Of a stretch of DNA of 56,907 nucleotides, positions 35,144 to 56,907 are shown one piece after another. Both the position numbers and the translations under genes were made by a program. Source of the stretch: a bacterium (GTDB lineage Bacteria; Latescibacterota; Latescibacteria; Latescibacterales; Latescibacteraceae); contig JAJFUH010000220.1 in NCBI GenBank assembly GCA_021372535.1, positions 1 to 56,907 of the forward strand. The letters run 5' to 3'. Every line of letters begins with the position of its first letter. Position 1 is the stretch's first letter. The notes beneath the pieces were generated by a model that worked only from the letters and a program-made list of their open reading frames with translations, ran no database searches and was not told the DNA's origin.

Positions 35144-35270
35144 TTCAATTGTATTACTTCATATTACGATAGAAATGTGTTGCTTTATGCCGATATTCGT
35201 TTTAGAATAGGAAAGTCATACATATTATATTTTCTCTCCGTTCATTTTATTTCTTCATTGGACATTGTTA

Positions 35271-38200: not shown

Positions 38201-41200
38201 CGGATGGACGGGTGATGTTACCACAATCACCAATCCCCTTACCATCACCAATGTCGATAACAACATGGTGGTCACTGCCAATTTCAATGACGCATGCACT
38301 GTTATGAATACCGACGACAGCGGTACAGGTTCCCTCCGTCAGGCGATTCTCACCGCCAATTCGGGCGAAACGATCCTCTTCGATGCCGGTGTGATGGGGA
38401 CAATCACGCTGACATCCGGCCAGCTCGCTATCAATAAAAAACTCACGATCCACGGTCCGGGCATCGATGACCTCACCATCTCCGGCAACAATACGAGCCG
38501 GATATTCTTTATAGGCCCGAACGGAGATGTCACCATCAACCTCATGACAATAACAAACGGCAATGCGGGAATAAATGCCGGCGGCGGGATTTGGAGCCAG
38601 GGCAAGCTGACACTCTCTGCCTGTGTCGTTTCCGGCAATACCACCGACAACAATTTCGGTGCGGGAATCTGCAACTCCGACGGTGACCTCATGGTGGAGA
38701 ACTGCACGATTTCCTCCAACAACGCCGGGACAACGAGCGGGTACGGTGGTGGAATCTATGTCAGGTCCGGCTCCGCTCTCATAACGAACTCGACCATCAG
38801 CGGAAACTCGGCATACAAGGGCGGCGCTCTGTACAATACGGCATTCAATGATACATCGGCTTCAGTGTCAACCATCGAAGTTTATAACAGCACGCTGAGC
38901 GGCAACACGGTCTCATGCCAGGGTGGTGCGCTTTTCAACTGGGCTCATGACAACGTGAATGCGCATGCAAAAACGCTCTTCAACAACTGTACTATCACAG
39001 AAAACAGCGCGACTGTTGAAGGCGGTGGTGTGTATGTGAACGATTATACCGGTGACGACCAGTTGTGCGAGGTCATGCTCAAAAACACCATCCTCGCGGG
39101 GAATACCGCTCCGACCGGCGCCGATTGCCTCAATTCTCCGCAGGCAACGTGTACCACTCAGTCGCTCGGGTACTGTCTGGTCGGCGCAACAGTCGACTTC
39201 ACCGGAGGAACCGGCGACATAAACATCGGCGCCGACGATCCTTTGCTTGCCCCCCTTGCAGACAACGGCGGCCCGACCTTTACCCATGCATTGGAAAGCG
39301 GCTGCCTTGCCGTCAATGCAGGTGCCGGAACGGACAGCGAAGGTAATCCGGTCCCAAACGATCAGCGCGGCGTGGCTCGTCCCCAGGGAGCATCCAACGA
39401 TATCGGTGCTGTGGAAGCTGCGGTTCATACGGTGACATTCGTGGCGGGACCGAACGGCCACATTGACGGTACGCTCGTGCAGCAGGTTATTGATGGGGGG
39501 AGTACGACTTCGGTAACCGCAGTGCCCGATGAAAATTATCTGTTCTCCGACTGGACGGGAGATGGTCTGTATAAAACCTCAAATCCCCTCGCAGTCACCG
39601 ATGTAACATCCGATATGAATATCACGGCCAACTTTGTATCCAATACTCTTACGGTGACAAACGATTATGATGATGGTGCCGGATCGCTGCGGAATACAAT
39701 AGCCATTGCCCCGCCTGGTGCTGTTATTATGTTCGACAGTGGCCTGGCGGGTCAGGTGATAACGCTGACAACTGATGAACTCGTCATTAACAAAAACCTT
39801 ACGATCAACGGTACGGCGGCGCCGAATCTTTCGATCAACGTTTATGAGCCTATCCGTATATTTAAAGTGATCAGCGGTGTAAGCGCAACCATCACAGGGC
39901 TGACTATCAATGGCGGATATCTGGAAGGAGGCTTCGGTGCGGGAATCCTGAACGAAGGCTCGCTCATCCTCTCGGATTGCACGGTAAAAGACTGCACCAA
40001 CATCAATGGTTTCGGCGGTGGTATCTGCAACAGGGGCGATCTGGTGGTGCAGAAATGCACCATAAGCGGAAACAACGTGGGGAATGGTGACGGCGGGGGT
40101 ATTTTTAACGAGCACCTCGGGAATCTCACCGTAAACTTTTCCACAATCTGCGGTAATTCCGCCCAGCGCGGCGGCGGTATCATGAACTGGGAAACGAATA
40201 TCGAGTCCTCGGCCATCACAACCATTAACAACAGCACCATAAGTGGAAACAATGCATCCTCTTATGGCGGCGGAATAATGAACTACAGTGATTGCCAGGA
40301 TGCCAATGCGCATGTTGCGATCAATTTTGCGACGATCACCGACAATTCCGCCGGGAGCATCGGTGGCGGCCTCTATCAGGACTGGGGTGTTCAGGGTACG
40401 AAAACCGCCGAAATCGAGTACCGGGACACCATTATAGCGGGAAACAACGGCGAAGCTGGCCCCAATGACTGTGCTCAGTCCAATGGCACCATGATATCGC
40501 GAGGGTACTGCCTCATCGGTGAGACCACCGGAGATGTGACCGGCGATGCAACCGATATTGTCATCGGAACGGCAGACCCCAACCTCGGCCCGCTCGACGA
40601 TAACGGAGGCCCGACCAAGACACACAAACCGCTGTCCGGGTGTCTCGCCATCAATGCAGGTAACAGCCAGGGTATCGGCGGAACAGAATTCACGGTCGAT
40701 CAGCGATTTTTTGCCCGTCCCCAGGGAGCAGCCCACGATATCGGTGCTGTGGAAGCTGAGCTCCATACGGTAACTTTCGTGGCAGGACCAAACGGCCATA
40801 TTACAGGAACTCTCGTTCAATATGTTTCCGATGGCGGGAGCACGACGCCGGTTACCGCTATTCCCGATGAATTCTATGTTTTCTCCAACTGGTCGGGAGA
40901 TGATTTTTATAAGACCAACAATCCTCTTGTGGTAACTAATGTGTTATCCGATATGATTATCACAGCCGATTTTGCCTATGGAATTTACACGGTAACAAAC
41001 GATATGGATGACGGCTGCGGGTCGCTGAGGCATGCAATAACCTATGTTCCTCCCAATGGGTATATCGTGTTTGACAGCTCCCTTGCGAATCATGTAATAA
41101 CATTGACAACAGGTCAACTTTTCATTACTCAAAATCTTATCATCGATGGCAGTGCCGCGCCCAATCTGGAGATCAGCGGAAACAATACATCCCGCGTTTT

Positions 41201-44200
41201 TAAAGTGGACACCGGTGTAACCGTGGCCATCAGCGGATTGATTATTTCGAACGGGAATTCTTCCGGCAGCTATGGCGCCGGAATATATAATCAGGGTTCT
41301 CTGACTCTTACCAATTGCGAGATCAAAAACTGCACAGCCCCCAGCGAAGGATACGGCGCCGGAATCGCAAACAGCGGCGTTCTGGTGGTACAGAAATCCT
41401 CCATACACGATAACTCTCTGCCATCCGGTACCGGCGGAGGCATCTTTAACAGTCCACCCGGTATTGTAACCATATGCTCTTCCACAATTGCCAATAATTC
41501 CGCCTACCAGGGAGCCGGTATTATGAACCTGGATACTACCCTCTCGGCGGGTTCGGTTGTCGTTATCAACAACAGCACCATCAGCGGGAATGTGGCTTCC
41601 GACAAGGGCGGCGGCATCATGAACTACAGTGAATACAACGGTTCCGATGCCCGTGTTACCATCAATTTTGCTACAATCACCAATAATTCCGCCGCTATTG
41701 CCGGTGGAGGAATCTGCCAGGAATGGGGGTCGTCCGGCACTAAAATAGCCTTGACGCAGTACCGGAATACCATCATAGCCGGCAACACCGTCGAGGTTTC
41801 TCCCAATGACTGTGCACTGATCAATGGCACTATGATATCGATGGGGTATTGCCTTATCGGTGTGACTTCAGGAAGCCCGACCGGCGATGCCACCGATATC
41901 GTAATCGGAACGGCAAGCCCCAATCTCGGTCCGCTCGAGGATAACGGCGGCCCGACCAAAACGCATAAGCTGCTGCAGGGATGTCCCGCTATCGATGCGG
42001 GTAACAGCGAGGGTATCGGCGGCGTAGTACTCACAGTCGATCAGCGAAATTATTATCGCCCCCAGGGCGGAGGATACGATATCGGGGCTTATGAAGCTTC
42101 CGCCGGAGAAATTACAGCGGACTATACAATTATTTTCAACGCCGCCACGGGAGGCACCATCTCCGGGACAACACCCCAGATTATTCCCCCCGGCGGCACC
42201 ACGACTCCTGTAACGGCGGTTCCCGGCGCCGGGTATCTGTTCAGCGGATGGACCGGAGATTATACGGGAACGGAGAATCCGCTGACCATCGCCGATGTCT
42301 CGACGAACATGACCATCACCGCACAATTCGTTCAGAATAATGCCCCCGTACTGCTTGTTGATCGAACCCCGGTTATGACACCTATCGCCCAGGGCGCTGT
42401 TAATAATCCGGGAAATACTGTCGCCCAGATTGTCGTTGACGGTTCTATCACCGATGTAGAGGGGGCTGTGGAGGCTATTGCGGTTACTTCGGTGGATAAC
42501 AGGAACGGAAGATGGGAATATTCCCTCGATGATGGCAGCACATGGAATAATTTTTCAGCAGCGATCGGGACGATCGCATCTTTTGCAAATCTTGCCCGGT
42601 TGCTCGACGGTGTTGCAATAAGCAGCACGACGAATAAAATAAGGTTTGTGCCCAATACAAACTATACCGGTACGACATGGTTTCTGTTCCGCGCCTGGGA
42701 TAAGAGTGCGGGTACAGTCGGCCAGACAGGCAATGCGTCAGTCACCGGCGGCTCGACGCCATTCAGCGCCCAGAGAGATACGGCATATGTAAAGGTGGGG
42801 ACCCAGTACACGGTAACGTTTACCTCAGGACCGCATGGCCATCTCACCGGAACGACGACGCAGACGGTTATTTCCGGGGGGAGTTGCACACCGGTGACCG
42901 CCGTTACGGAATCAGGGTACCAGTTCGCAGGCTGGACTGGCGATTATACCGGCTCGAACAACCCTCTGACGGTCACGAATGTCACCCAAAACATGACAAT
43001 TACCGCAAACTTCGAAACCGCCCTGCACGCCGTGACCTTCACAACGGACGGGCATGGTACAATCCAGGGTGTAACGCCCCAGGGAATTCCGCATGGCGGG
43101 GATTGTTCACCGGTAACCGCTGTTCCCGCGAGCGGGTATCATTTCATCGGATGGACGGGCAGCATCACCAGTCCCAACAATCCGATTACCGTACAGCAAG
43201 TAACCGAGGACATGACCATTACCGCAGTTTTCTCGAACACATGGGTGGTACACTTTTCTGCCGGAGCTCACGGGAAACTCTCGGGTGAAACCGCGCAGCT
43301 TGTCGTTCAAGGGCAAGGCACCTCATCGGTGACCGCCATTCCCGACGCAGGATATCATTTTACGGGCTGGACAGGCGATGTAACAAGCAGCAGCAATCCG
43401 CTTTCCGTCTCGGGAGTGTCATCAAATATAAGTGTAACCGCTAATTTTTCCAATACATACACTGTCTCCTTCTCTTCCGGCGGCAATGGGAAGATAGAAG
43501 GTTCGACCTCTCAGGAGGTGATCAGCGGGCAGAGCTGCACCATGGTGACTGCCGTACCGGATACGGGTTACCAGTTCTTGGGCTGGACAGGCGATTTCGA
43601 GGGTACCGGGAATCCTCTCCTCATCGCCAATGTCTCAAAGGATATGTCCATCACCGCGCTTTTTGGTCTTCCCTCTTTTACGGTGACTTTCTCTGCGGGC
43701 TCCAATGGTTCCCTTACCGGCAATACGACACAGACTGTCGGCAAGGGTGAAAGCTGTACCGAAGTCACCGCGTTACCGGCGGATGGGTATGAATTCACCG
43801 GCTGGTCTGGTGACTACACGGGTAAAGACAACCCGCTCGTCCTGTCGAATGTAACCCGTGACATGACCATCACGGCTAATTTCGCGCTCCCTGTCTATAC
43901 GGTGAGCTTCTCTGCGGGCGCAAATGGTTCCCTTACCGGTAATACGACACAGACAGTCGGCAAGGGTGAAAACTGCACCGAAGTCACCGCGGTACCCGCG
44001 GAAGGGTATGAATTTACCGGCTGGTCCGGTGATTACACGGGTAAAGACAACCCGCTCGCCCTGTCGAATATCACCAGGGATATGACCATCACGGCTAATT
44101 TCGCGCTCCCTGTCTATACGGTGAGCTTCTCTGAGGGCGCCAATGGAAGTATTACGGGGAATACCACCCAGACGGTCAAGAAGGGTGAAAGCTCTACCGA

Positions 44201-47200
44201 AGTCACCGCGGTACCCGCGGAAGGGTATGATTTTATCGGCTGGACAGGCGATTATACGGGCGCTGCCAACCCGCTCACCCTGTCGAATGTCACTTCGGAT
44301 ATGACCATCACGGCGAATTTCGGCCAGCCTGTTTACACGGTGTCTTTCTCGGCGGGCGCCAACGGCTCTCTCACCGGACAGACTGCCCAGACAGTTAAAA
44401 AGGGCGGGAGCTGTACCGAAGTCACCGCAATTCCAGCAGAAGGGTATGATTTTATCGGCTGGAGCGGAGATTTTACAGGCGCCGCCAACCCGCTTATCAT
44501 ATCGAATGTCACTTCGGATATGACCATCACGGCTAATTTCGGCCATTCGGCCTACACGGTTACGTTCTCGTCGGGCTCCAACGGTTCGCTTTCCGGTCAG
44601 ACTTCCCAGACGGTCATAAAGGGCGGAAGTTGTTCGGCGGTTACCGCAGTGCCTGCCAACGGTTATCGCTTTACCGGATGGACCGGAGACTATACAGGCT
44701 CCGACAACCCGCTCACCTTGTCAAATGTCACCTCGGATATGACCGTCTTCGCCAATTTCTCGAACGTCTGGACAGTGACATTTTCATCGAGCGGCGGAGG
44801 GACTCTCACCGGCAACACCACCCAGACGGTAACGAACGGATCGAATTGTTCCATGGTTACCGCAGTGCCTTCAAACGGGTATCGATTCACCGGCTGGAGC
44901 GGTTCGTATAACGGTACCGATAATCCGCTCACCATATCGAATGTTACCTCGGATTTGACTATTACCGCAAACTTCTCGAATACATGGTCAGTGACATTCT
45001 CAACGAACGGTTTCGGGTCCATCAGCGGCAGTACATCTCAGACGGTGACAAACGGTTCAAACTGCTCCGAAGTTTCCGCGATTCCGGGAACAGGATACTA
45101 TTTTGCCGGATGGAGCGGAGATTATACCGGCGCTGCCAACCCGCTCACCATCACCAATGTCATGTCCGACCTCACCATTACCGCAAATTTCGTTCTCATC
45201 CCTGTTGTGGAGATTCCGAGTATCGCAGGATTTTCTCCGGGATCCGGCGGACCCGGGACCTGGGTTACCATCAGCGGATCGAACTTCAAGGGTGTGACCG
45301 ATGTATCGTTCGGCGGTACACAGGCGGCGAGCTTCGTGGTTGATTCCGATACACAGATAACAGCCCAGGTGGGCAGCGGTTCCACCGGTACGATATCGGT
45401 GACAACCGCAGGCGGAACGGCCTCGAGCACGGGAATCTTCTCCATGAATGTGAATGAAGCGCCGACCGATATTTCGCTGTCGAGCACTTCTGTGGATGAA
45501 AACAAAGATGCTGGAACGGAGGTCGGCACTTTTTCGACCACCGATGTCAATTCAGCAGACATTCATACCTATTCATTCGTAAACGGAGAAGGCGATACCG
45601 ACAACGGCAGTTTTTCGATCAGCGGTTCCTCGCTGGTCACGACGTCAAAACTCGATTACGAGACACAGAATACCTATTCGATCCGTGTTCGCTCAACCGA
45701 CAACGGCAATCCGGGATTAAGTTGCGATAGATCCTTCGTTATCACTGTCAACAATACAAACGATCCCCCTGTTATCGGTGAACTGGCCGGTGGCACCGTC
45801 AGGGAGGGAGAGCAGTTCACGCTCCAGGTTTCGGCGGTCGATGTCGAAGGCGATGCAATAACATACTCATTGAACGAAGCACCGGAGGGGATGACGATAT
45901 CCGAAACGGGCGGGATAAGCTGGACACCGGATTTCACCATGGCAGGAGACTATACCGTTACCGTTCAGGCGACGGATTCGAAGGGAAGCTCGAGCGAAGC
46001 TTCATTCAGTCTTAAAGTGCTCGAAGGCGGCACAGCGCCGGTAATAACCACAACGGAACTGCCCAATGCACAGAAAGGGATCCCGTACTCGGCTCAGATC
46101 ACGGTCGAAGACCCCGATGTTGGTGACAGTTTTGCGTTCGAACTCCTGAGCGGTCCCGGCTGGATGTCGATCAACGATGCCACGGGAGAACTGTCGGGAA
46201 CACCGTCTCAGAGTGATATTGCCGACAGTGTGACCGTTTCCGTCGGTGTAACGGACAGCGGAGGACTCAAAGCCGACAAGACCTTTACGATAACCGTGGA
46301 GAATGTGAATAATCCTCCTTCGCTGACCAACGAATCGTTACCGGATGCCAGACAGAACGAGCTCTATACGGCTCTCCTGGCCGCAACCGATCCTGACGAA
46401 GGTGATACGCTTACATTCATTATGCCGGGAGGCCCGGGCTGGATGACCCTGAATTCCGAAACGGGAGAATTATCGGGTACACCGGGCAACGGAGATGCCG
46501 CAGACAGTGTGCTGGTGACTGTCGGAGTGAGAGACAGCGGCGGTTTGACCGAAGAAAAAACGTTCATGATCAAAGTGGTCAATGTCAACGATCCACCCCG
46601 TATAACGACCGCGTCTCTGCCCGATGCCACCGAGGGACAGGAATATTCCGCGGGGATTGCTGCTGATGACCCGGATCAGGGCGACACACTGGCATTTTCG
46701 CTCGTTCAGGGTCCCGGCTGGCTCGCTATAAACTCCGAGACCGGAGCACTTTCGGGAATTCCGGGCAGCGATGATATCGCGGACAGTGTCACGGTCACCA
46801 TCGAGGTGAAGGATGCCCAGGGATTGACCGACAACCGCGAGTTCATGTTCACGGTGATCAATGTCAACGATCCTCCGGAGATAGTGACCGAGAAACTGCC
46901 GGATGGATTCGAGGATTTACCTTACGAGGCAAAGGTCGATATACTCGATCCCGACAGGAACGACACACACCTGTTCGAGCTCGTGAGCGCACCGAAATGG
47001 CTTGAGATCGATCCCACCGGAGGAGGGCTGTCCGGAAAGCCGGGTACATTTGATGTGGCTGAGGAAGTGACGATTATCATCAGAGTGACGGATGAAGGCG
47101 GATTATTCGCCGAGAAAACCTTCATGATACCGGTCAAGCCGTCTCCTCTTCCGAAAATCGAGGTGCTTTCTCCGAATGGCGGAGAAAAAATAATGGCCGG

Positions 47201-48638
47201 AGGTTCGTTCGACATCGCATGGATAGCTAAGAATCTCGCCGCCGTGATGATCGAATATACCACCAACGAGGGGGCATCATGGGAGAAAATCGTCGACAGT
47301 ATTGCGGCCGACGAAAATTACACTACATGGACTCTCCCGCAGATTCAGTCCACGCTGTGCCGTATTCGTATCAGCAATCCCGAGAACAATCTCGTGTTCG
47401 ATGTGAGCGATACGACCTTCACGATATACAGGCCTCCGGTTCTTACGGTCGACGATATATTGGGCACGCAATCGGGAAATGTTTCGATCGGTGTTCTTTC
47501 AAGCGATGCGGGCAGCGATTCGACAGGACTCATCGTATCATATGTTATCGACAATATCGAGCAGCCGGCCACAATCGATTTACCGTTCATCCCGAGCGGG
47601 CAGAAAGTGACAGTCACATGGTCGTCTTTTGCGGACATGGGCTATGTCTATAAAAAGAATCTGATATTACGGCTCATACCCTTCAATACGTACGGCAGGG
47701 GAGAGGTGACCCAGACAAAGATATTCACCGTAACGAATTATGTCGGAGACTACAACAACGATCTCTATATTGACGGCGAAGACCTCCGGATATTTGTCGA
47801 TGCATGGGAGAACGGGGACCTTACGCGTGAAATAGCACCGACCAGCGGTGAAATTCCCGATCTGCAGGTTATCCCTGACGGCAGGCTGGATTACGAGGAT
47901 CTGTCCGTATTTGCATGGATGTGGAACTGGCAGACGCTCAACCCGTTCGGAAAACCGGCTGTCGCTCTCAAAACGGCCATTCCCGATGGAGATTTTCTGT
48001 CATTCATCACCATCGTTCCCGACAGCGACGGGAATATCAGGCTGATGAGCGACCGGAGCCTTTCCTATGTGAGCATCGAGCTCGCCTCCGACCGGATTAC
48101 ATCGATTTCGGGTTCCGATTACTGGGATGGGGACGGCAAGGGTGTCGCTCTTACACGGGTATTAGCGGACGGTTCGGGTGAATTCGCTGCCGCGCGCCTG
48201 GAACCGACCACGGCGACATCAGGGATTCCCGTGACAATTGCCTCGATTTCGCTTGACGACAGGGACAACGACAACGGAAATCTCACCATCCGGTATAAAG
48301 TGAGAATTCACGGCGAGCCCGAAGTTATTTCGGGAGCATCTGCATATACCAGGGAAAAAGCGGTTGAAAAACCGGCCGCAACGACTCTTTTCCAGAACAG
48401 CCCGAATCCGTTCAACGGCTTTACAACCATTACCTATGCCCTTACGGAGGAAACGAAGGTTAAACTGACCATATACAATGTTTCGGGCCAGCAGGTGAAA
48501 GTACTGAAAGATGAATATGTGTCTCCGGGAACTTATTCTGCTTTGTGGGATGCTTCCGGTATGCCGAGCGGGATATATTTCTATTCATTTGAAGCAGGCA
48601 ATTTCATCGCTACGAAGAAACTGCTCCTTGTCAAATAG
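35271..48638 (+). CDS. giant modular surface protein (delta-60, beta-helix, B-repeat, Ig, dockerin-like, FlgD-like tail)
   Basis: About 4,455 residues with a signal peptide (cleavage near VFG/DM). Approximate domain order: ~14 delta-60 repeats (30-860), broken at ~708-730 by a PRA/AKA low-complexity insert; two InlB-type B-repeats (865-1008); three units of right-handed beta-helix plus one B-repeat (1010-2358), each ~1.34 kb; a beta domain (2359-2512); eleven tandem ~73-residue B-repeats (2514-3312); IPT/TIG; cadherin-like; five putative Ig domains (3500-3960); a Kre9-like module; a dockerin-like pair of F-hand loops (4160-4225), the first with D-x-N-x-D-x-x-x-D-x-x-D; a beta domain; and a FlgD-Ig/type IX-like tail (SPNPFNGFTTI to LLLVK). 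It should be secreted and displayed as an adhesin or carbohydrate-binding fibre. TTG 35265 is an alternative start. The function is inferred. Confidence 0.9.
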   Translation: MKLRVKNILLLICGFLFFCSGVFGDMMPAGAIPGTLDESFGSLGRTYTDLNQFSAEYGKAVVCNSEGKVIVAATVNGTIALARFDSTGVLDPAFGDAGIVITPITGEAKALNLLSAEGEYYIVVGSTDDGGENDFVVACYDYLGAPETNFGNGGVVTTDFGGTDDSACAVGISYDDGGILVAGYTNVNGNYDFAVAKYTFPFGNLDTSFNITGKSTFDINDSGYDDKAFGITINAIDYSILVTGSAGNGTDSDLALICLDTSGDLDSDFDSDGILTCDFNSNNDDIGYAVSYNSTNTCIVVTGTTDNGTDLDFAIAVIDSDGVHLVTKDLGDDEQGNGVAFQTDGKIIVSGTAGSDFAVIRYQADIDNGLDTTFNDPDGYLIADIAGFDDTANGMSLDIFDRIVIVGTSIVYGNPDLVVTRITADGSPDYDFGSGSSYQAVDFPLVHQNDCAFGVAVQYDGKIVVSGSNGSSAGLVRYNSNGSLDTSFGSNGTVKVTIPGYTWTANEKVVIQPDHKIILVGSTEEVGGPLVISRFNEDGSPDIGFGINGRVEQDPGVPVYIAGVGLQSDGKIVVGTTASDDGDYFVLVIRLNTDGSLDETFGDGGMAYDENGMSYSAMVYDMVIQPDDKIVLSGGIINGIVPNFFLVRFTAGGVLDTTFGSNEDGKVIITPGPFATIANGVALQPDGKIVAAGLMDTTQGMCKIAQVPRAPRAPRTPRAPNAAKAAKAAENFLNIVIMRFLSDGTLDETFADEGINVLDTGEDIFIEDVLIDTNGKIVVGGNYNGWDFAVGCFNSNGSICSEFGDSYVTGFTFPDLSTGGDFVDDCTAIALDSNHRIIAVGFSDQGTTYTDFTIARINSTPLTVKFTTTGHGEVLADSTQYVVYNGVTTSVSPDPDYGYHFSGWTGDHTGSETDFPLILTNVIQDMNIVAHFSKNTFTVDFTIMGNGSITGTLSQNVEFEGSTTPVTAVADPGNHFTGWTGDVTTITNPLTITNVDNNMVVTANFNDACTVMNTDDSGTGSLRQAILTANSGETILFDAGVMGTITLTSGQLAINKKLTIHGPGIDDLTISGNNTSRIFFIGPNGDVTINLMTITNGNAGINAGGGIWSQGKLTLSACVVSGNTTDNNFGAGICNSDGDLMVENCTISSNNAGTTSGYGGGIYVRSGSALITNSTISGNSAYKGGALYNTAFNDTSASVSTIEVYNSTLSGNTVSCQGGALFNWAHDNVNAHAKTLFNNCTITENSATVEGGGVYVNDYTGDDQLCEVMLKNTILAGNTAPTGADCLNSPQATCTTQSLGYCLVGATVDFTGGTGDINIGADDPLLAPLADNGGPTFTHALESGCLAVNAGAGTDSEGNPVPNDQRGVARPQGASNDIGAVEAAVHTVTFVAGPNGHIDGTLVQQVIDGGSTTSVTAVPDENYLFSDWTGDGLYKTSNPLAVTDVTSDMNITANFVSNTLTVTNDYDDGAGSLRNTIAIAPPGAVIMFDSGLAGQVITLTTDELVINKNLTINGTAAPNLSINVYEPIRIFKVISGVSATITGLTINGGYLEGGFGAGILNEGSLILSDCTVKDCTNINGFGGGICNRGDLVVQKCTISGNNVGNGDGGGIFNEHLGNLTVNFSTICGNSAQRGGGIMNWETNIESSAITTINNSTISGNNASSYGGGIMNYSDCQDANAHVAINFATITDNSAGSIGGGLYQDWGVQGTKTAEIEYRDTIIAGNNGEAGPNDCAQSNGTMISRGYCLIGETTGDVTGDATDIVIGTADPNLGPLDDNGGPTKTHKPLSGCLAINAGNSQGIGGTEFTVDQRFFARPQGAAHDIGAVEAELHTVTFVAGPNGHITGTLVQYVSDGGSTTPVTAIPDEFYVFSNWSGDDFYKTNNPLVVTNVLSDMIITADFAYGIYTVTNDMDDGCGSLRHAITYVPPNGYIVFDSSLANHVITLTTGQLFITQNLIIDGSAAPNLEISGNNTSRVFKVDTGVTVAISGLIISNGNSSGSYGAGIYNQGSLTLTNCEIKNCTAPSEGYGAGIANSGVLVVQKSSIHDNSLPSGTGGGIFNSPPGIVTICSSTIANNSAYQGAGIMNLDTTLSAGSVVVINNSTISGNVASDKGGGIMNYSEYNGSDARVTINFATITNNSAAIAGGGICQEWGSSGTKIALTQYRNTIIAGNTVEVSPNDCALINGTMISMGYCLIGVTSGSPTGDATDIVIGTASPNLGPLEDNGGPTKTHKLLQGCPAIDAGNSEGIGGVVLTVDQRNYYRPQGGGYDIGAYEASAGEITADYTIIFNAATGGTISGTTPQIIPPGGTTTPVTAVPGAGYLFSGWTGDYTGTENPLTIADVSTNMTITAQFVQNNAPVLLVDRTPVMTPIAQGAVNNPGNTVAQIVVDGSITDVEGAVEAIAVTSVDNRNGRWEYSLDDGSTWNNFSAAIGTIASFANLARLLDGVAISSTTNKIRFVPNTNYTGTTWFLFRAWDKSAGTVGQTGNASVTGGSTPFSAQRDTAYVKVGTQYTVTFTSGPHGHLTGTTTQTVISGGSCTPVTAVTESGYQFAGWTGDYTGSNNPLTVTNVTQNMTITANFETALHAVTFTTDGHGTIQGVTPQGIPHGGDCSPVTAVPASGYHFIGWTGSITSPNNPITVQQVTEDMTITAVFSNTWVVHFSAGAHGKLSGETAQLVVQGQGTSSVTAIPDAGYHFTGWTGDVTSSSNPLSVSGVSSNISVTANFSNTYTVSFSSGGNGKIEGSTSQEVISGQSCTMVTAVPDTGYQFLGWTGDFEGTGNPLLIANVSKDMSITALFGLPSFTVTFSAGSNGSLTGNTTQTVGKGESCTEVTALPADGYEFTGWSGDYTGKDNPLVLSNVTRDMTITANFALPVYTVSFSAGANGSLTGNTTQTVGKGENCTEVTAVPAEGYEFTGWSGDYTGKDNPLALSNITRDMTITANFALPVYTVSFSEGANGSITGNTTQTVKKGESSTEVTAVPAEGYDFIGWTGDYTGAANPLTLSNVTSDMTITANFGQPVYTVSFSAGANGSLTGQTAQTVKKGGSCTEVTAIPAEGYDFIGWSGDFTGAANPLIISNVTSDMTITANFGHSAYTVTFSSGSNGSLSGQTSQTVIKGGSCSAVTAVPANGYRFTGWTGDYTGSDNPLTLSNVTSDMTVFANFSNVWTVTFSSSGGGTLTGNTTQTVTNGSNCSMVTAVPSNGYRFTGWSGSYNGTDNPLTISNVTSDLTITANFSNTWSVTFSTNGFGSISGSTSQTVTNGSNCSEVSAIPGTGYYFAGWSGDYTGAANPLTITNVMSDLTITANFVLIPVVEIPSIAGFSPGSGGPGTWVTISGSNFKGVTDVSFGGTQAASFVVDSDTQITAQVGSGSTGTISVTTAGGTASSTGIFSMNVNEAPTDISLSSTSVDENKDAGTEVGTFSTTDVNSADIHTYSFVNGEGDTDNGSFSISGSSLVTTSKLDYETQNTYSIRVRSTDNGNPGLSCDRSFVITVNNTNDPPVIGELAGGTVREGEQFTLQVSAVDVEGDAITYSLNEAPEGMTISETGGISWTPDFTMAGDYTVTVQATDSKGSSSEASFSLKVLEGGTAPVITTTELPNAQKGIPYSAQITVEDPDVGDSFAFELLSGPGWMSINDATGELSGTPSQSDIADSVTVSVGVTDSGGLKADKTFTITVENVNNPPSLTNESLPDARQNELYTALLAATDPDEGDTLTFIMPGGPGWMTLNSETGELSGTPGNGDAADSVLVTVGVRDSGGLTEEKTFMIKVVNVNDPPRITTASLPDATEGQEYSAGIAADDPDQGDTLAFSLVQGPGWLAINSETGALSGIPGSDDIADSVTVTIEVKDAQGLTDNREFMFTVINVNDPPEIVTEKLPDGFEDLPYEAKVDILDPDRNDTHLFELVSAPKWLEIDPTGGGLSGKPGTFDVAEEVTIIIRVTDEGGLFAEKTFMIPVKPSPLPKIEVLSPNGGEKIMAGGSFDIAWIAKNLAAVMIEYTTNEGASWEKIVDSIAADENYTTWTLPQIQSTLCRIRISNPENNLVFDVSDTTFTIYRPPVLTVDDILGTQSGNVSIGVLSSDAGSDSTGLIVSYVIDNIEQPATIDLPFIPSGQKVTVTWSSFADMGYVYKKNLILRLIPFNTYGRGEVTQTKIFTVTNYVGDYNNDLYIDGEDLRIFVDAWENGDLTREIAPTSGEIPDLQVIPDGRLDYEDLSVFAWMWNWQTLNPFGKPAVALKTAIPDGDFLSFITIVPDSDGNIRLMSDRSLSYVSIELASDRITSISGSDYWDGDGKGVALTRVLADGSGEFAAARLEPTTATSGIPVTIASISLDDRDNDNGNLTIRYKVRIHGEPEVISGASAYTREKAVEKPAATTLFQNSPNPFNGFTTITYALTEETKVKLTIYNVSGQQVKVLKDEYVSPGTYSALWDASGMPSGIYFYSFEAGNFIATKKLLLVK
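37390..37461 (+). repeat. in-frame low-complexity insert inside the giant gene
   Basis: Short units encoding Pro-Arg-Ala (three and a variant PRT) then Ala-Lys-Ala interrupt a delta-60 repeat between K-I-A-Q and the strand N-F-L-N-I. The DNA is made of GTGCTCC/CGAGAACTCC-like pieces that do not resemble the surrounding repeat and recall the gagctccacgagctccggg stretch at 56652. Confidence 0.6.
38292..42336 (+). repeat. three ~1.34-kb tandem units encoding beta-helix plus B-repeat
   Basis: Units start near 38292, 39640 and 40984. Each begins with V-T-N/M-N-D-x-D-D-G-x-G-S-L-R, passes through an N-S-T-I-S-G-N rich beta-helix and ends with a PQG...DIGA(V/Y)EA segment and one B-repeat. Spacing of 1,348 and 1,344 bp marks a tandem triplication. 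Confidence 0.85.
42805..45200 (+). repeat. eleven tandem InlB-type B-repeats, period ~219 bp
   Basis: Each unit has T-V-T-F-S-x-G-x-N-G, then G-Y-x-F-x-G-W-T/S-G-D, then N-P-L, then N-V-T-x-D-M-T-I-T-A-N-F. Units five to nine (about 43675-44545) are near-identical at DNA level; the string TTCGCGCTCCCTGTCTATAC recurs 219 bp apart (43881 and 44100), so recent unit duplication or gene conversion is likely. Confidence 0.9.
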
Positions 48639-50648: not shown

Positions 50649-52307
50649 TCATGCGGTTCCGAGGATGGCAGCAAGATCCTGTTCCGCGGTGGTTATCGGC
50701 ATGATATTGAATTTCTCCACAAGCACATTGAGGACATTCGGCGTTATGAACGCGGGAAGGCTCGGTCCGAGACGGATGTTTTTGATTCCGAGGTAGAAAA
50801 GTGTCAGGAGGATGACAACCGCCTTCTGCTCGAACCACGAGAGCACGAGCGACAGCGGCAGGCTGTTGACATCGGTATCAAAGGCTTTCGCAAGCGCAAG
50901 GGCGATCTGTATGGCCGAGTAGGCATCGTTGCACTGACCGATATCGAGCAGCCGCGGAATTCCTCCGATGTCGCCGAAATCGAGCTTGTTGAAACGGTAT
51001 TTTCCGCAGGCGAGGGTAAGGATAACCGAATCGTCCGGTACCGCCTGGGCAAAATCGGTATAGTAGTTCCGCCCGCTCCTGGCGCCGTCGCACCCGCCGA
51101 CAAGGAAGAAATGCCTGATTTTGCCTTTTTTCACAGCCTCGATAACCTTGTCTGCCACACCGAGAACAGCGTTATGCCCGAAACCGACCAGAATGGTGCG
51201 ATCCGGCCCGTCCTCGTCGAATCCCTTTTCTGCAAGGGCCGCCTCGATTACAGACGCGAAATGTCTGTTCCTGACATGGATGACACCCGGCGCTCCGACC
51301 ACATTGGTGGCGAAAATCCGGGACGCATATGAATCCTTCGGTTTCTGGATACAGTTCGTTGTCATGAGAATGGCGCCGGGGAATTTATCGAACTCCTTCA
51401 ACTGATCCTGCCATGCGCCCCCGTAATTACCCGCAAGGTGACTGTATTTCTTCAGCCCGGGATAACCGTGGGCGGGAAGCATCTCGCCGTGGGTGTAGAC
51501 ATTGATGCCGGTGCCTTCGGTTTGTTTGAGCAGCTCCTCGAGGTCCCTGAGGTCGTGCCCGGACACGAGAATTGCTTTGCCCTTGAGAGGCTCTATCCTG
51601 ACCTTTGTCGGAACAGGATGGCCGTAACGACTCGTATGAGCCGTATCGAGCAGTTCCATGACCCGGAGATTGACCTCGCCGCATTTCATGTTCATTGCAA
51701 ACAGCTCATCAACCGTTACACCGGTTTTTGTCAGGAAATCGAGCGCCTCGTGCGTAAACGCGAATACGGCATCGTCCTGCTTTCCGAGATCGAAGGCATG
51801 ATCGGCGTATGCGGCCATTCCCTTGAGACCGTAGGTGAGGAGCTCCTGGAGTCCGGTGATATCGTCTCCGAGCGAGGCTTTCCGCTTCTCGATGGATAGT
51901 TCCCCCGCCTGTCCCAGAAGATCATCCATGTCCCCGGCAGGGATAAATTCCGCAGGACCGCCGGGAGTTTCTTCCGCGATTCCGGTTTTCTTACAGGCAT
52001 CCCGGTAGAATCCCCTGATCTTATTGCGAACATGTACCGCCCGTTCGAGCATCTGACGGATCCGTGCCGAATCGAAATTGACATTGGTGAGGGTGGTATA
52101 GAGCGCCTGAATCACGAAGACATCGGTTTCGGGGTCTTTCACGCCGAGTGTACGAGCACGGTGAGCGTACATGGAAATGCCTTTTGTAACATGCAGGAGC
52201 AGGTCCTGGAGCGCCGCGGTTTCAGGGTCTTTACCGCATGTCCCGTAGCTCGTGCATGCGATTCCTTTGGTGACCTGTTCGCATTGATAGCAGAACATCT
52301 TTGACAT
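50649..52307 (-). CDS. hcp: hybrid cluster protein (hydroxylamine reductase)
   Basis: Hcp reduces hydroxylamine and nitric oxide and protects against nitrosative stress. The N-terminal cysteines C6, C9, C18 and C24 (CYQCEQ, ACTSYGTC) bind the 4Fe-4S cluster, and the hybrid-cluster ligands are visible as VSGHDL, TTNCIQ, GGCDGARSGR, TLACGKYRF and IGQCND. The length of 552 residues is normal. GGAGAAG precedes the ATG. Its neighbour is a ferredoxin-like protein that could supply electrons and an Rrf2 regulator on the same strand. Confidence 0.96.
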   Translation of the reverse strand: MSKMFCYQCEQVTKGIACTSYGTCGKDPETAALQDLLLHVTKGISMYAHRARTLGVKDPETDVFVIQALYTTLTNVNFDSARIRQMLERAVHVRNKIRGFYRDACKKTGIAEETPGGPAEFIPAGDMDDLLGQAGELSIEKRKASLGDDITGLQELLTYGLKGMAAYADHAFDLGKQDDAVFAFTHEALDFLTKTGVTVDELFAMNMKCGEVNLRVMELLDTAHTSRYGHPVPTKVRIEPLKGKAILVSGHDLRDLEELLKQTEGTGINVYTHGEMLPAHGYPGLKKYSHLAGNYGGAWQDQLKEFDKFPGAILMTTNCIQKPKDSYASRIFATNVVGAPGVIHVRNRHFASVIEAALAEKGFDEDGPDRTILVGFGHNAVLGVADKVIEAVKKGKIRHFFLVGGCDGARSGRNYYTDFAQAVPDDSVILTLACGKYRFNKLDFGDIGGIPRLLDIGQCNDAYSAIQIALALAKAFDTDVNSLPLSLVLSWFEQKAVVILLTLFYLGIKNIRLGPSLPAFITPNVLNVLVEKFNIMPITTAEQDLAAILGTA

Positions 52308-52347
52308 ATTTCTTCTCCGTCTGAAAAGGATTATAAAACCATTACTG

Positions 52348-52376
52348 CCTGATTATAACCAGATAAACCTGATTAT
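52348..52376 (-). promoter_or_regulatory. candidate direct-repeat operator upstream of hcp
   Basis: Two CCTGATTAT repeats spaced two helical turns apart lie 41-69 bp before the hcp start. TATAAT occurs on the minus strand within the repeats and again just downstream. They differ from the palindrome before the Rrf2 gene. Confidence 0.4.
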
Positions 52377-52392
52377 TCATGAAAATATGTTT

Positions 52393-52424
52393 AACCACAA
52401 AGACACCAGGGCACAAAGAGACAT
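52393..52424 (+). repeat. short dispersed repeat family 4, plus copy
   Basis: TAACCACAAAGACACCAGGG then CACAAAGAGACA, a widely seen intergenic repeat type; related copies lie at 24136-24166 and, more distantly, 27366-27400. Confidence 0.6.
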
Positions 52425-52492
52425 AATATATTATTAATACTATCTTTAATTACAATTTAAAATCGACATTACTCCCAGTGATATTTAAAATT

Positions 52493-52540
52493 CAAATCCG
52501 CGAAAATCCGTCCGATCCGCGAAAATCCGCGTTCTATTAA
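52493..52540 (-). repeat. dispersed repeat family 3, copy 4
   Basis: On the minus strand it starts AATAGAACGCGGATTTTCGC and continues GGATCGGACGGATTTTCGCG, parallel to the copy at 49532. Confidence 0.7.
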
Positions 52541-52674
52541 ATTTTGTGAATAGATCGGATTAAATTTGTGAAATGATCGGGACAAAAGAGTATTTCCACA
52601 TCCGAAAAATCTGAAAATCTGGGTACTCCTCTCAAACCATATACAGTATGCCAGCTGACAGGTATCGGCGACCG

Positions 52675-53406
52675 CTATTCCGTCATTTTCCTGATTGTAT
52701 CCCCGGAGATGCTAACGATATGAACTTCGAGCAGTACATCGGGGCAGGCCCGATTACGGGCATCGATTACGGCATGGGCAATTCCGCTGCAGCAGGGAAC
52801 CTCCATACGCAGCACGGTGATTCGGACGGGTTTCGACTCCCGGAATATTTCGAGCAGTTTTTCACGGTAATATGGCAGATTATCCAGTTTCGGGCATCCG
52901 ACCAGCACTGCCCTTCCTTTGAGATAACGGTGGTGGAAATCCGGCACTGCGAACGGAACACAGTCGGCGCACACGACAATATCAGCCCCTTTCAAAAACG
53001 GCGCTCGCGGCGGTACGAGCATGAGCTGCACGGGCCAGTGCCGAAGTTGCGAAGGTTCCGGTGTATCGGTCTTGACGGTGTCAGTATCTGCGGTATCGAA
53101 GGTGCGGGCAAGCGAACCCGGGCAGCCGCCGGAACACGCGGACAGCATATCGTCTGATCTGTGAGACTCAGGCGCCAAATATTTTTGAACTGCTTCTTCA
53201 TCAAATTCGCCGGCCTCGCGTTCCTCGATGGAAAGAGCGCCCTCGGGGCACTCGCCGAGACACGCCCCGAGCCCGTCGCAGTAAGTCTCGCTCACCAGGC
53301 GGGCTTTCCCGTCGATAATTCTGAGCGCTCCCTCGACGCAGTTCGGAACGCACAGACCGCAGCCGGTACATTTTTCCTCGTCAATCTCTATAATTTTACG
53401 AATCAT
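52675..53406 (-). CDS. 4Fe-4S ferredoxin-domain protein next to hcp
   Basis: A 243-residue protein. The first ~60 residues are a two-cluster ferredoxin domain (C-T-G-C-G-L-C-V-P-N-C and C-D-G-L-G-A-C-L-G-E-C-P). Later cysteines (SACSGGCPG, VVCADCVPF, LVGCPKLD, VPCCSG) suggest more metal or redox sites. Similar proteins are often found beside hcp in anaerobes and are thought to pass electrons, though that role is inferred. It begins 3 nt after the Rrf2 stop codon, with AAAGGATAG upstream, so the two are co-transcribed. Hcp follows 367 nt later. Confidence 0.85.
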   Translation of the reverse strand: MIRKIIEIDEEKCTGCGLCVPNCVEGALRIIDGKARLVSETYCDGLGACLGECPEGALSIEEREAGEFDEEAVQKYLAPESHRSDDMLSACSGGCPGSLARTFDTADTDTVKTDTPEPSQLRHWPVQLMLVPPRAPFLKGADIVVCADCVPFAVPDFHHRYLKGRAVLVGCPKLDNLPYYREKLLEIFRESKPVRITVLRMEVPCCSGIAHAVIDARNRACPDVLLEVHIVSISGDTIRKMTE

Positions 53407-53409
53407 GTA

Positions 53410-53835
53410 CTATCCTTTTACTTTCGGTTTCGCATGGGCGATATCGGACAGTTTTGTGGTGGTCAGATACTTCCTGACCGTAGTGTTCAATTCATCGAGA
53501 AGAGCGCCGAACACGCAGGTATCGAAGGAACACACCGGCGTCTCGAACAGGCAGGAGCTCGTTGACAATGGCCCCTCGAACAGCTCATAGATTTCGAGCA
53601 TGCTTATGGCGCCGGGATCATTATCGAGCATGAATCCACCCCCGGGCCCGCGGGTCGATTTCACGAATCCCGCTTTTACAAGCCGCTGCATGACTTTCGA
53701 CAGATGCGCTTCCGAGACACGATATTCCGTTGCGATTTCCCTGAGGGAAACCGTTCTGTCGGTGTGACCGGCACAGTAAACCAGTGCATGAAACGCCAGT
53801 ATGGCGGCATCGGAGATATTGAGCACACGAGACAT
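53410..53835 (-). CDS. Rrf2-family Fe-S regulator
   Basis: A 141-residue winged-helix regulator. The DNA-binding half has SLREIATEYRVSEAHLSKV and the TRGPGGGF wing. Three clustered cysteines, C95, C102 and C107, match the Fe-S ligand region of IscR/NsrR/RsrR-type members, so it likely senses NO, oxygen or iron-sulfur status. The spacing (x6, x4) differs from E. coli NsrR and IscR. ATG 53835 follows AGGAGG and is preferred over an upstream in-frame start. It heads the operon with the ferredoxin gene and probably controls itself and hcp. Confidence 0.9.
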   Translation of the reverse strand: MSRVLNISDAAILAFHALVYCAGHTDRTVSLREIATEYRVSEAHLSKVMQRLVKAGFVKSTRGPGGGFMLDNDPGAISMLEIYELFEGPLSTSSCLFETPVCSFDTCVFGALLDELNTTVRKYLTTTKLSDIAHAKPKVKG

Positions 53836-53846
53836 ACGCCCTCCTA

Positions 53847-53892
53847 TTTGGTATTCTGATACCATAATACCATAATTGAAGAACGTTGTCAA
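53847..53892 (-). promoter_or_regulatory. sigma70-type promoter with overlapping palindrome, Rrf2 gene
   Basis: On the minus strand TTGACA (53887-53892) and TATTAT (53864-53869) are spaced by exactly 17 bp. The palindrome TGGTAT-TCTG-ATACCA (53849-53864) starts at the last base of the -10 box and covers the start region, and a further ATGGTAT copy lies in the spacer. This is the layout of an autorepressed promoter. Confidence 0.82.
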
Positions 53893-54334: not shown

Positions 54335-55216
54335 ATGACTAAACACGCACAACCACTTGCCGAAGTCTTTGGTCACCTTATAAGTGATCAGACGAAAAAG
54401 GCAGTCAGGTACCGTTCGCATCGCCTTTGTCCATTTAATAACAAAGTTCCAAATTGTACAAAAGACAAAGCCAAGAACCCCCTTGGTGTATGCAGTGTGT
54501 TCCATGATGGGTCCCCATCGATAACCTGCCCTATCCGATTTAGAGAGAATTGGCTTATTACCGATGATGCTGCTTCTTTTATCTTTGATGAAGGCACTGC
54601 ATGGAGTTCCCTTACGGAAGTCCGCCTGAACGACGCTAATGGTAAGTCGGCTGGTAATATTGACATTGTTCTTATCGCATACGACAACAATGGGAAAATC
54701 ATAGACTTTGGGGCTCTTGAAATACAAGCGGTTTACATTTCTGGAAATGTACGCGATCCATTCGAATACTTCATGAAAGATCCTAAAAATCGCGGACAAA
54801 TGGATTGGTCAACTCAGCCGAACTATCCACGTCCAGACTATCTTTCCTCTTCTCGCAAGAGACTAGCTCCGCAATTGCTGTTCAAAGGCGGAATTCTTCA
54901 TTCGTGGCAGAAGAAAATAGCTGTCGCAATGAACAAGTGTTTTTTTGATACACTCCCCCCCTTGACAACTGTGGATAAAACAAAAGCCGATATCGTATGG
55001 CTAATCTATGATCTCGAGATGGCTAAAGAGGGTGATCAGGACAGGTATATACTCACGAAAATTGATGAAGTGTTTACAGAATTCGCACCTGCTTTGATGT
55101 CAATTACCACCCCCATGCCAGGGGAAATCGATGACTTTGTGAAAATGCTTCAGGAGAAGCTTGATGAGCAACTTGAAACTCCTCCGACTAACAAAACAGT
55201 TGAAAGGCCATTTTGA
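54335..55216 (+). CDS. NotI-family type II restriction endonuclease
   Basis: The 293-residue protein matches the NotI family: R-L-C-P-F-N-N-K-V-P-N-C-T-K-D-K followed by L-G-V-C-S and later I-T-C-P supplies the four cysteines that hold an iron atom in NotI. The nuclease core shows N-I-D-I-V-L and then A-L-E-I-Q, an Asp and Glu-x-Gln set replacing the usual E-x-K. The gene is AT-rich and codes unlike its neighbours, so it was probably acquired. It overlaps the methyltransferase gene. The recognition site is not known. AAAGGAT lies ~10 nt before the start. Confidence 0.85.
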   Translation: MTKHAQPLAEVFGHLISDQTKKAVRYRSHRLCPFNNKVPNCTKDKAKNPLGVCSVFHDGSPSITCPIRFRENWLITDDAASFIFDEGTAWSSLTEVRLNDANGKSAGNIDIVLIAYDNNGKIIDFGALEIQAVYISGNVRDPFEYFMKDPKNRGQMDWSTQPNYPRPDYLSSSRKRLAPQLLFKGGILHSWQKKIAVAMNKCFFDTLPPLTTVDKTKADIVWLIYDLEMAKEGDQDRYILTKIDEVFTEFAPALMSITTPMPGEIDDFVKMLQEKLDEQLETPPTNKTVERPF

Positions 55217-56153
55217 AATGAGGTCACTCAAACAACAGTCATTATTCCCTGAATTGTATGAAGATATAATATTATCCCCTAAACCGGTTAATGTCGCCTC
55301 TGTCCCGCAAAGAAGTCCCTTCCGCTACCCAGGCGGGAAAACATGGTTTGTTCCGGTATTCCGAAATTGGATTGCAAATCATTATCCCAAACCTGAAATT
55401 TTGATTGAACCGTTTGCTGGTGGAGGCATTATCAGCCTCACAGCTTTATTTGAGAACCTTGTCTCGCACGTTGTGATGGTTGAAATTGATGAAGACATTG
55501 CTGCGGTGTGGCAATCGATAGTCGATGGGAACGCAGAATGGCTGGCGAAAAAAATCCTTGATTTTGACCTTACTAAGGAAAAAGTCATACAGGAAATATC
55601 CCAAACTAGCCTCAGCATAAAAGAGAAAGCTTTTAAGACTATCTTGAAAAATAGAACGTTTCATGGTGGGATATTGGCTGAAGGGTCAGGTTTTTTGAAA
55701 CATGGGGAGAACGGCAAAGGAATTCACTCACGCTGGTATCCCGCAACACTTGCTAAGCGTTTTGAAAATTTAAAATTTATTGTTGATAGGATTACATTCC
55801 GTCAAGAAGACGGACTGGGTGTTATTCGAGAGTATTCTCAACGTTGTGACGTGGTGTTTTTTATCGATCCTCCTTATACGGCTGGTGGAAAGAAGGCAGG
55901 TAAACGTCTTTACCGTCATTTCAACATCGAGCATGAACGTTTATTCAAATACTGCGAATCTCTAAAAGGCGATTTTTTGATGACCTATGATAACTCAGAT
56001 GAGGTCAAGACAATGGCAATAAGGCATGGTTTTCAGATACGCCTCATTCCTATGATGAACACTCACCATGCAACAATGGAGGAACTGGTTATAGGTAAAG
56101 ACTTGGCATGGATGGATGGTTACCCGGCAATGCATGAGCCTATAGCTAAATAG
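55164..56153 (+). CDS. D12-class DNA adenine methyltransferase
   Basis: This N6-adenine methyltransferase shows the Dam/D12 order of motifs: F-R-Y-P-G-G-K, then E-P-F-A-G-G-G (SAM binding), then D-P-P-Y (catalytic). It should protect the host against the overlapping NotI-family nuclease. ATG 55164 lies 7 nt after AGGAG inside the nuclease gene, giving a 53-nt overlap; ATG 55218, just after the nuclease stop, is an alternative. Codon use is AT-rich like its partner. Length 329 residues. Confidence 0.9.
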   Translation: MSNLKLLRLTKQLKGHFEMRSLKQQSLFPELYEDIILSPKPVNVASVPQRSPFRYPGGKTWFVPVFRNWIANHYPKPEILIEPFAGGGIISLTALFENLVSHVVMVEIDEDIAAVWQSIVDGNAEWLAKKILDFDLTKEKVIQEISQTSLSIKEKAFKTILKNRTFHGGILAEGSGFLKHGENGKGIHSRWYPATLAKRFENLKFIVDRITFRQEDGLGVIREYSQRCDVVFFIDPPYTAGGKKAGKRLYRHFNIEHERLFKYCESLKGDFLMTYDNSDEVKTMAIRHGFQIRLIPMMNTHHATMEELVIGKDLAWMDGYPAMHEPIAK

Positions 56154-56609
56154 AAATCCTTTCCTAATAATTGTCCATCCCGCACATGTTTACTTCCCCC
56201 CCTTTTATACCCTCTTGCCTCCCTTCATTAACCTAACCTTCGCACCCAATCCCCAAATTATTTCATAACCTTCGTTATTTTTCTCTTGACTTTACAAGTG
56301 TAATTGATTATATTACCTCTCGGTAATAAGTGAGCGACCACGCTCTTTTTTTATGCTGATCAATAACGTTCGTTGGTTATGTGAATGTTTGATACAAACT
56401 ATAGTTACGGGCACAAGGCACAAGGCACAAGGCACAAGGCAGAAGGCAGAAGGCAGAAGGCATAAGGGGGAAAAACCAGAGACTTTCCGGGTTCACTTCT
56501 GACGATTAGAGATGGGTCCCCGATTAAAGATTCGGGGAAGACAGGTGGTGATGTGAAGGTCTTTTCACTCAGTGCCTCAGTGCCTTAGTCACTGTTTATT
56601 CATTCACTT
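56154..56609. other. 456-nt repeat-rich intergenic region
   Basis: A pyrimidine-rich stretch follows the methyltransferase, then the left heptamer array, then a stretch with CCCCGATTAAAGATTCGGGG (an inverted repeat, about 56519-56538) and a GTGCCTCAGTGCCTTAG repeat. No gene was recognised in it. Confidence 0.5.
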
Positions 56610-56637
56610 ATGCCTTATGCCTTATGCCTTGTGCCTG
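56410..56637. repeat. inverted pair of tandem heptamer arrays
   Basis: The left arm (56410-56467) is GGCACAA repeated, changing to GGCAGAA and GGCATAA. The right arm (56609-56637) is built of TTATGCC and TTGTGCC, the same units inverted. They enclose ~140 bp. Confidence 0.75.
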
Positions 56638-56907
56638 TCTGTATTAAATCCGAGCTCCACGAGCTCCGGGAATTCCGGAACCGTAAGGGTGTGACGCTTT
56701 CCGATCAGATCAGGGAATGGGTAGGAGCAACAAAAGGCAACTTTCTGGTAACAGATTGTTACAAAGACCTCCACTTAGCAACAAAAAGCAACATGAGTAA
56801 CTGCCGCCTGGTTCTCAGCCGTCTCGTCGAAGAAGGAGTCATCGAACCGTGCGGAACCAGACGGGGTCTGTACCGCCGCATCGAGGGCGATTGCGAGCGC
56901 ATCGACT
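56610..56907 (+). CDS. 3'-truncated hypothetical protein with winged-helix-like end
   Basis: An open frame runs from ATG 56610, or GTG 56631, past the window's end. The first ~10 residues are encoded by the right heptamer arm, so the real start may be GTG 56631 or further in. Later residues (KGNFLVTDCYKDL, LVLSRLVEEGVIEP, RRGLYRRIEG) look like a winged-helix fold common at the start of AAA ATPase/primase-type proteins of mobile elements. Only ~98 residues are visible and the function is unknown. GC content is higher than in the restriction genes. Confidence 0.6.
   Translation, partial: MPYALCLVPVCIKSELHELREFRNRKGVTLSDQIREWVGATKGNFLVTDCYKDLHLATKSNMSNCRLVLSRLVEEGVIEPCGTRRGLYRRIEGDCERID

What the first reader, a model, noticed from the sequence alone, without database searches (positions are those of the whole stretch)
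54335..56153. NotI-family nuclease paired with an adenine methyltransferase
The nuclease has the iron-binding cysteines and D...E-x-Q site of the NotI family, but its overlapping partner methylates adenine. NotI's own site GCGGCCGC has no adenine, so this system must cut a different sequence. That would be a new specificity within an uncommon nuclease fold.
Basis: partly seen in the sequence, partly recalled or inferred. Interest (0 to 1): 0.5.

Follow-up and report, generated by a model that had tools for sequence, protein, structure and literature searches.

The report
NotI-like nuclease guarded by adenine methylase
This is a compact bacterial defence gene pair shared by distant microbes: a DNA-cutting enzyme built like the laboratory enzyme NotI, with a partner that looks like it marks adenine, so it probably cuts a different and still unknown DNA sequence.

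Summary
Window 54335-55216 encodes a NotI-family nuclease: Pfam PF12183 E 3.5e-62, AlphaFold model matching NotI at Z 20.8 against 5.3 for the best non-NotI entry, four cysteines and D110...E129-x-Q131 as in NotI. The next gene is a D12-class adenine methyltransferase. The genes probably do not overlap: the likely start is ATG 55218, one base after the nuclease stop. Of 80 relatives from many phyla, 68 carry the same partner downstream; the three held genomes of the same genus or family lack both genes.

Across the NotI family the partner varies: D12, C5 or N4/N6 type. A plasmid nuclease (L104), 80-85% identical to D12-paired ones, is paired with a C5 methyltransferase. If both are cognate and specificity is unchanged, the site of that branch contains both A and C; for the window this is extrapolation. 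Motif avoidance named no site. Verdict: a real Type II restriction-modification variant, specificity unknown.

The parts
54335..55216 (+). NotI-family restriction endonuclease, 293 aa
   Evidence: PF12183 E 3.5e-62; AlphaFold model pLDDT 90, NotI 3c25 Z 20.8
54428..54529 (+). Span of the four cysteines C32, C41, C53, C65 (metal-binding fold of NotI)
   Evidence: Invariant in 43 of 43 rows, C41 not in a wider alignment; all four align with NotI. Metal not tested.
54662..54727 (+). Catalytic D110 ... E129-x-Q131
   Evidence: D110 and E129 invariant, Q131 nearly invariant; aligned with NotI
55218..56153 (+). D12-class DNA adenine methyltransferase, 311 aa from the likely ATG start
   Evidence: PF02086 46 bits, cut-off 22; start inferred from spacing in relatives
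55161..55217 (+). In-frame upstream extension from TTG that would overlap the nuclease gene; probably not translated
   Evidence: ORF; in 58 of 68 relatives an ATG lies within -4 to +7 bases of the nuclease stop
55202..55207 (+). Possible ribosome-binding site GAAAGG, 10 nt before ATG 55218
   Evidence: Read directly from the sequence; inference
55407..55427 (+). Methyltransferase motif I EPFAGGG (AdoMet binding)
   Evidence: motif role recalled
55866..55877 (+). Methyltransferase motif IV DPPY
   Evidence: Present in 5 of 5 rows and 8 of 8 rows; motif role recalled
56332..56345 (+). Possible terminator hairpin followed by a T run, about 180 bases after the methyltransferase stop
   Evidence: 5 such sites found in the region against 2.8 expected, so weak

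Best explanation
A Type II restriction-modification system. The nuclease has the NotI fold: a four-cysteine metal site braces the DNA-binding part, and a PD-(D/E)xK-type centre (D110, E129, Q131) cuts a short, probably palindromic site, most likely as a dimer. The downstream D12 methyltransferase puts N6-methyl on an adenine in the same site and so protects the host. The site therefore contains an adenine, and from the C5-paired relatives probably also a methylatable cytosine, so it is not NotI's GCGGCCGC. The actual sequence is unknown. Shown here: gene pair, fold, conserved residues, conservation of the pair, partner variation in the family. Inferred: dimer, cleavage, m6A product, cognate pairing, A+C site, recent gain by horizontal transfer.
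For: Family and fold. Partner class. Conserved pairing: 68 of 80 loci, same strand and downstream; 57 of these 68 with both ORFs at least 270 aa. The D12 subfamily is shared even where nucleases are far apart: partners in L105 and L106 are 48-49% identical to the window's while the nucleases are 28-30% identical. A+C site: nuclease L104 is 80.5-84.8% identical to L105, L106, L251 and L293, yet L104 sits tail-to-tail with a C5 methyltransferase and the other four beside D12; no adenine methylase is annotated on L104's plasmid. 26 of 29 C5 sequences share one target-recognition stretch, (S/G)DHTKRYGR...TK(C/M)DxHWG (two of them near-copies, L244 and L245); the C5 beside the NotI relative L292 has another. 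Mobility: G+C 0.43 and 0.42 against 0.51 for the window up to 53800; the one held relative of the same genus and the two of the same family lack both genes, though these are draft genomes of 80-97% completeness; relatives in many bacterial phyla, Methanothrix, plasmids and viral contigs.
Against: No cleavage or methylation data. Avoidance tests named no site in hosts of the system; GCGATCGC gave 35 observed against 36.9 expected. The step to an A+C site assumes that nucleases 80-85% identical share a site and that both partners are cognate; the chromosome of L104's host was not searched, and that branch is only 28-31% identical to the window nuclease. The D12 enzyme falls below the NCBIfam Dam cut-off (40.5 against 114.85 bits). 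In the methyltransferase tree the partners of the second nuclease branch do not form one clade (4 changes, 2 forced by supported branches), so pairs have not simply descended together.
Confidence: 0.6

Rival explanations
1. The D12 enzyme methylates cytosine at N4 in an all-G+C site such as GCGGCCGC or CGGCCG, so the nuclease may still cut a NotI or EagI-type site.
For: C5, N4/N6-type and D12 partners are exchanged within one nuclease family. Recalled, not checked: some adenine methyltransferases of this group can modify cytosine N4 in altered sites; EagI is a NotI relative cutting CGGCCG.
Against: Motif IV is DPPY, typical of N6-adenine enzymes (recalled), in each of the 8 and 5 D12 rows aligned. 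No natural D12 enzyme with N4-cytosine as its main product is known to me.
Confidence: 0.08
2. Specificity changed when the partner was exchanged, or the C5 gene beside L104 is not its cognate partner; the window system then has some adenine-containing site unrelated to those of the C5-paired relatives.
For: L104 differs from its D12-paired kin at scattered positions, mostly in the N-terminal half; its gene order differs (tail-to-tail) and it carries a Vsr gene.
Against: The stretch RRPDYRSS...ADIAWF is identical in L104, L105, L106 and L251; the same C5 target-recognition stretch recurs in 26 of 29 C5 sequences.
Confidence: 0.2
3. The pair is decaying or has a changed role, and does not restrict in this host.
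For: Relatives include broken copies: the L002 nuclease has a stop at codon 137, and 11 of 68 pairs have one ORF shorter than 270 aa, some through contig ends. Nine Chlorobiaceae loci keep the nuclease without a methyltransferase found in the locus.
Against: Both window genes are full length with the conserved residues.
Confidence: 0.1

Closest known systems
NotI (PDB 3bvq, 3c25)
   Same: Fold, four cysteines, D...ExQ active site
   Different: 17% identical in the structural alignment; the nearest NotI relatives found (L291, L292, 47% identical to a 185-residue NotI fragment) carry an N6_N4-type and a C5 methyltransferase, not D12
RefSeq/PLSDB 'NotI family restriction endonuclease' next to 'DNA adenine methylase' on plasmids: Thermus brockianus, Aeromonas, Achromobacter pEST4011
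   Same: Same two gene families side by side; Thermus pair 67% (nuclease) and 56% (methyltransferase) identical
   Different: Achromobacter and Aeromonas nucleases only 28-30% identical; no specificity is given in these three tables
D12 class adenine methyltransferases (Dam and others)
   Same: PF02086, DPPY motif IV
   Different: Far below the Dam model cut-off; the stretch after the NR motif reads HGGILAEGS, unlike the Dam GLxR motif as I recall it
PD-Lambda-5 defence system
   Same: The methyltransferase hits its B-protein model at 5.9e-40; PMC9519451 calls that system a compacted RM+Abi version (passages seen)
   Different: No hit of the nuclease to a PD-Lambda-5 model at E <= 1

Membership tests
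NotI family (PF12183) | Score over the curated Pfam cut-off | tested here: met
   210.3 bits against 22
NotI family (PF12183) | Four cysteines of the metal-binding fold | tested here: met
   C32, C41, C53, C65 invariant in 43 rows, aligned with NotI; C41 not invariant in the 45-row alignment
NotI family (PF12183) | D...ExQ catalytic centre | tested here: met
   D110, E129, Q131; Q in place of K in NotI is stated in PMC4081073 (passages seen)
NotI family (PF12183) | NotI fold | tested here: met
   Z 20.8, rmsd 3.8 over 273 residues to 3c25; best non-NotI entry Z 5.3
NotI family (PF12183) | Iron bound at the cysteines | not testable with these tools
   Needs metal analysis
NotI isoschizomer | Cuts GCGGCCGC | not testable with these tools
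   Needs a cleavage assay; the partner class argues against it
D12 N6-adenine methyltransferases (PF02086) | Score over the curated Pfam cut-off | tested here: met
   46 bits against 22
D12 N6-adenine methyltransferases (PF02086) | N6-methyladenine product | not testable with these tools
   DPPY motif present; product not measured
Dam subfamily (TIGR00571) | Score over the curated cut-off | tested here: not met
   40.5 bits against 114.85
Type II restriction-modification system | Nuclease and methyltransferase as conserved neighbours | tested here: met
   68 of 80 loci
Type II restriction-modification system | Shared target site, protection by methylation | not testable with these tools
   No assay or methylome
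PD-Lambda-5 | Both proteins of the system | tested here: inconclusive
   The methyltransferase matches the B model; at E <= 1 the nuclease hit only a Type II restriction enzyme model, and weak matches can be dropped by the filters

The most novel reading that the evidence does not exclude
Within one nuclease family the protective chemistry has been exchanged several times (m5C, N4/N6-type, m6A-type) while the cut site stayed the same, at least between L104 and its D12-paired kin. The window's system would then belong to a large NotI-like branch whose common site holds both A and C and differs from NotI's. One cleavage assay plus one methylome would read the site for the whole branch.
Probability: 0.4. 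Interest if true: 0.55.

Novelty: new variant of a known kind. Interest (0 to 1): 0.4.

Why it matters
The solved member of this fold, NotI, is a rare cutter. A branch with a different partner class and probably a different site could yield a new tool enzyme, and lets one ask how a nuclease keeps its specificity while the enzyme that protects against it is replaced by a chemically different one.

Tried and rejected
Motif avoidance: palindromes in pooled hosts of the pair, in samples from three genomes with the pair and two without and in Chlorobiaceae. Many palindromes are under-represented with or without the pair. CGATCG has observed/expected 0.36 (G037) and 0.52 (G049) with the pair, 0.07 (G038) and 0.47 (G050) without; G000, with the pair, 0.56. 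The two 'without' genomes are imperfect controls: each has a distant NotI-like gene (L115, L117), and G038 also holds pieces of the D12 gene. No site could be named.

GCGATCGC or CGATCG as the site was an idea of mine from memory (AsiSI, XorII); no call supports it, and the recalled Dam-type recognition motif was not seen. The CGATCG-specific C5 methyltransferases described in PMC4390886 (passages seen) were not available for comparison.

Known specificity by kinship: orphan relatives of the methyltransferase in Bdellovibrio, Deinococcus and genome G020 gave no recognised nuclease (Pfam was run on one Bdellovibrio and two Deinococcus neighbours; G020 judged by eye from its ORFs). The C5 relatives at 45% or more to L104's whose neighbourhood I opened sit beside NotI-family genes; four at 36-37% do not, by annotation.

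Literature: I saw capped listings only in searches; no listed title or abstract start dealt with NotI-family nucleases and adenine methyltransferases. Searches returned no paper. The NotI structure paper and a classification paper are not held. Papers opened, passages only: PMC4081073, PMC9519451, PMC10609329, PMC4390886, PMC6789123.

Left out of counts: L118 (weak NotI match in G033) was not analysed; 54 of the 80 close relatives and loci L218-L226 and L245 (repeats) were not put in the nuclease trees.

Full report
What is there. The window holds two genes on the + strand: a 293-aa nuclease (54335-55216) and a methyltransferase ending at 56153. The nuclease is a NotI-family member by Pfam (E 3.5e-62), by profile search of the PDB (NotI 3bvq, 4.1e-6; the single sequence found nothing) and by predicted fold (pLDDT 90; 3c25 Z 20.8 over 273 residues, best non-NotI entry Z 5.3; Foldseek's only three matches at E <= 0.001 are NotI chains). 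The four cysteines, D110 and E129 are invariant and Q131 nearly so over 43 sequences down to 24% identity. A wider 45-row alignment keeps all of these but C41, which a 20-row alignment keeps in all rows. The methyltransferase is D12 class; the only solved relative found at E <= 0.001 is 7m6b, an adenine-specific methyltransferase.

Gene borders. In 68 relatives the in-frame ATG nearest to the nuclease stop lies one base after it in 32 and within -4 to +7 bases in 58 (the test favours near ATGs). In the window that start is ATG 55218.

Distribution. One scan of representative genomes gave 174 relatives, of which the best 80 were kept, 61-92% identical over the best segment. By record titles they span Nitrospirota, Planctomycetota, Verrucomicrobiota and kin, Chloroflexota, Chlorobiota, Acidobacteriota, Deinococcota, Pseudomonadota and others, and the archaeon Methanothrix. 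68 of the 80 have the D12 gene downstream on the same strand. Of the other 12, two end at a contig edge (L043, L044), one has a shortened nuclease C-terminus (L060), and nine are Chlorobiaceae loci listed under things noticed. In the host's phylum 11 of 64 genomes have PF12183: seven, the own one included, at E below 1e-59 and four as weaker, distant members; the one held relative of the same genus and the two of the same family have none, nor the methyltransferase. Elsewhere 13 of 398, 5 of 111 and 8 of 247 genomes have the family. The two genes have G+C 0.43 and 0.42 against 0.51 for the window up to 53800. All this fits recent horizontal gain.

Partner exchange in the family. I collected NotI-family loci from plasmids, viral contigs and genomes of four phyla. 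In one search, 17 of 141 loci (three of them repeats of other loci) had no D12, C5 or beta methyltransferase by my small search set; the other 124 had one or more in the locus. A tree of 91 nucleases (26 of the 80 close relatives chosen for spread, repeats dropped, NotI fragment left out) has partners D12 53, C5 27, beta 7, none 4. The D12 label needs six changes, of which well-supported branches force five; the changes include its loss in Chlorobiaceae. Several long branches make deep placements unsure. A tree of 41 methyltransferases puts the window's with L003 and L010 (100/97), close kin in the nuclease tree too, but the partners of the L104-L106 branch are not one clade.

The closest pair is the key. 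The nuclease of Paraburkholderia plasmid pBN5 (L104) is 80.5-84.8% identical to those of L105, L106, L251 and L293, whose partner is D12. L104 faces a C5 methyltransferase tail-to-tail and has a Vsr gene on the other side; the plasmid's annotation lists no adenine methylase (PLSDB gene tables are incomplete, and the chromosome was not searched). 26 of 29 C5 sequences share the same target-recognition stretch, 24 by the strict pattern and L241 and L301 with one change each; the exceptions are L018 (a C5 far from the nuclease), L242 and L292. L292 is, with L291, the closest to NotI itself (47%). So a nuclease of this branch appears to tolerate protection either by a C5 or by an adenine-class enzyme. 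The simplest reading is a site with both bases. The step from this branch to the window (28-31% nuclease identity, 48-49% methyltransferase identity) is an extrapolation.

What was not found. Avoidance tests named no site, no related system of known specificity was found, and the enzyme's site remains open.

Judgement. A real, probably active Type II system with a solved-fold nuclease and an adenine-class partner. The pairing is already visible in public plasmid annotation, so the gene pair as such is not new; the specificity and the exchange of protective chemistry are the points of interest.

Noticed in passing
L061, L062, L063, L066, L067, L070, L074, L079, L081: Chlorobiaceae loci carry NotI-like genes in frames with a long N-terminal extension (weak DUF2383 match in L062, below cut-off), six of the nine with a second copy on the other strand, and no methyltransferase found in the locus. 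In L062 both copies read ExH instead of ExQ. Possibly domesticated nucleases; in L062 the neighbours look like housekeeping genes by eye.
   Followed up: partly
L058:4246-6285: NotI-like gene followed by a gene with a weak HaeII restriction endonuclease match (below cut-off) and then only a C-terminal remnant of the D12 methyltransferase.
   Followed up: no
L002, L211, L214, L215, L217: Broken copies: L002 nuclease with a stop at codon 137; methyltransferase stretch with an internal stop in G033, and three separate methyltransferase stretches, one with an internal stop, in G038.
   Followed up: no
L209 (genome G031): The methyltransferase ORF begins with residues like the first 16 of the nuclease and no nuclease gene was found in that genome, as if the nuclease had been lost by an internal deletion.
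   Followed up: no
L116, L117: NotI-like genes overlapping the end of an upstream ORF that contains TDPPYYDSVQYS; no Pfam family found for the L117 ORF at E 0.001.
   Followed up: partly
window 35265-48638: ORF of 4457 aa with many repeats, by eye a surface protein.
   Followed up: no
window 56415-56640: Short repeats of the type GGCACAA / GGCAGAA in the intergenic stretch after the pair.
   Followed up: no
window 50649-53892, - strand: By reading the ORFs: a hydroxylamine reductase-like (hybrid cluster) protein, a ferredoxin-like protein and an Rrf2-like regulator upstream of the pair; families not searched.
   Followed up: no
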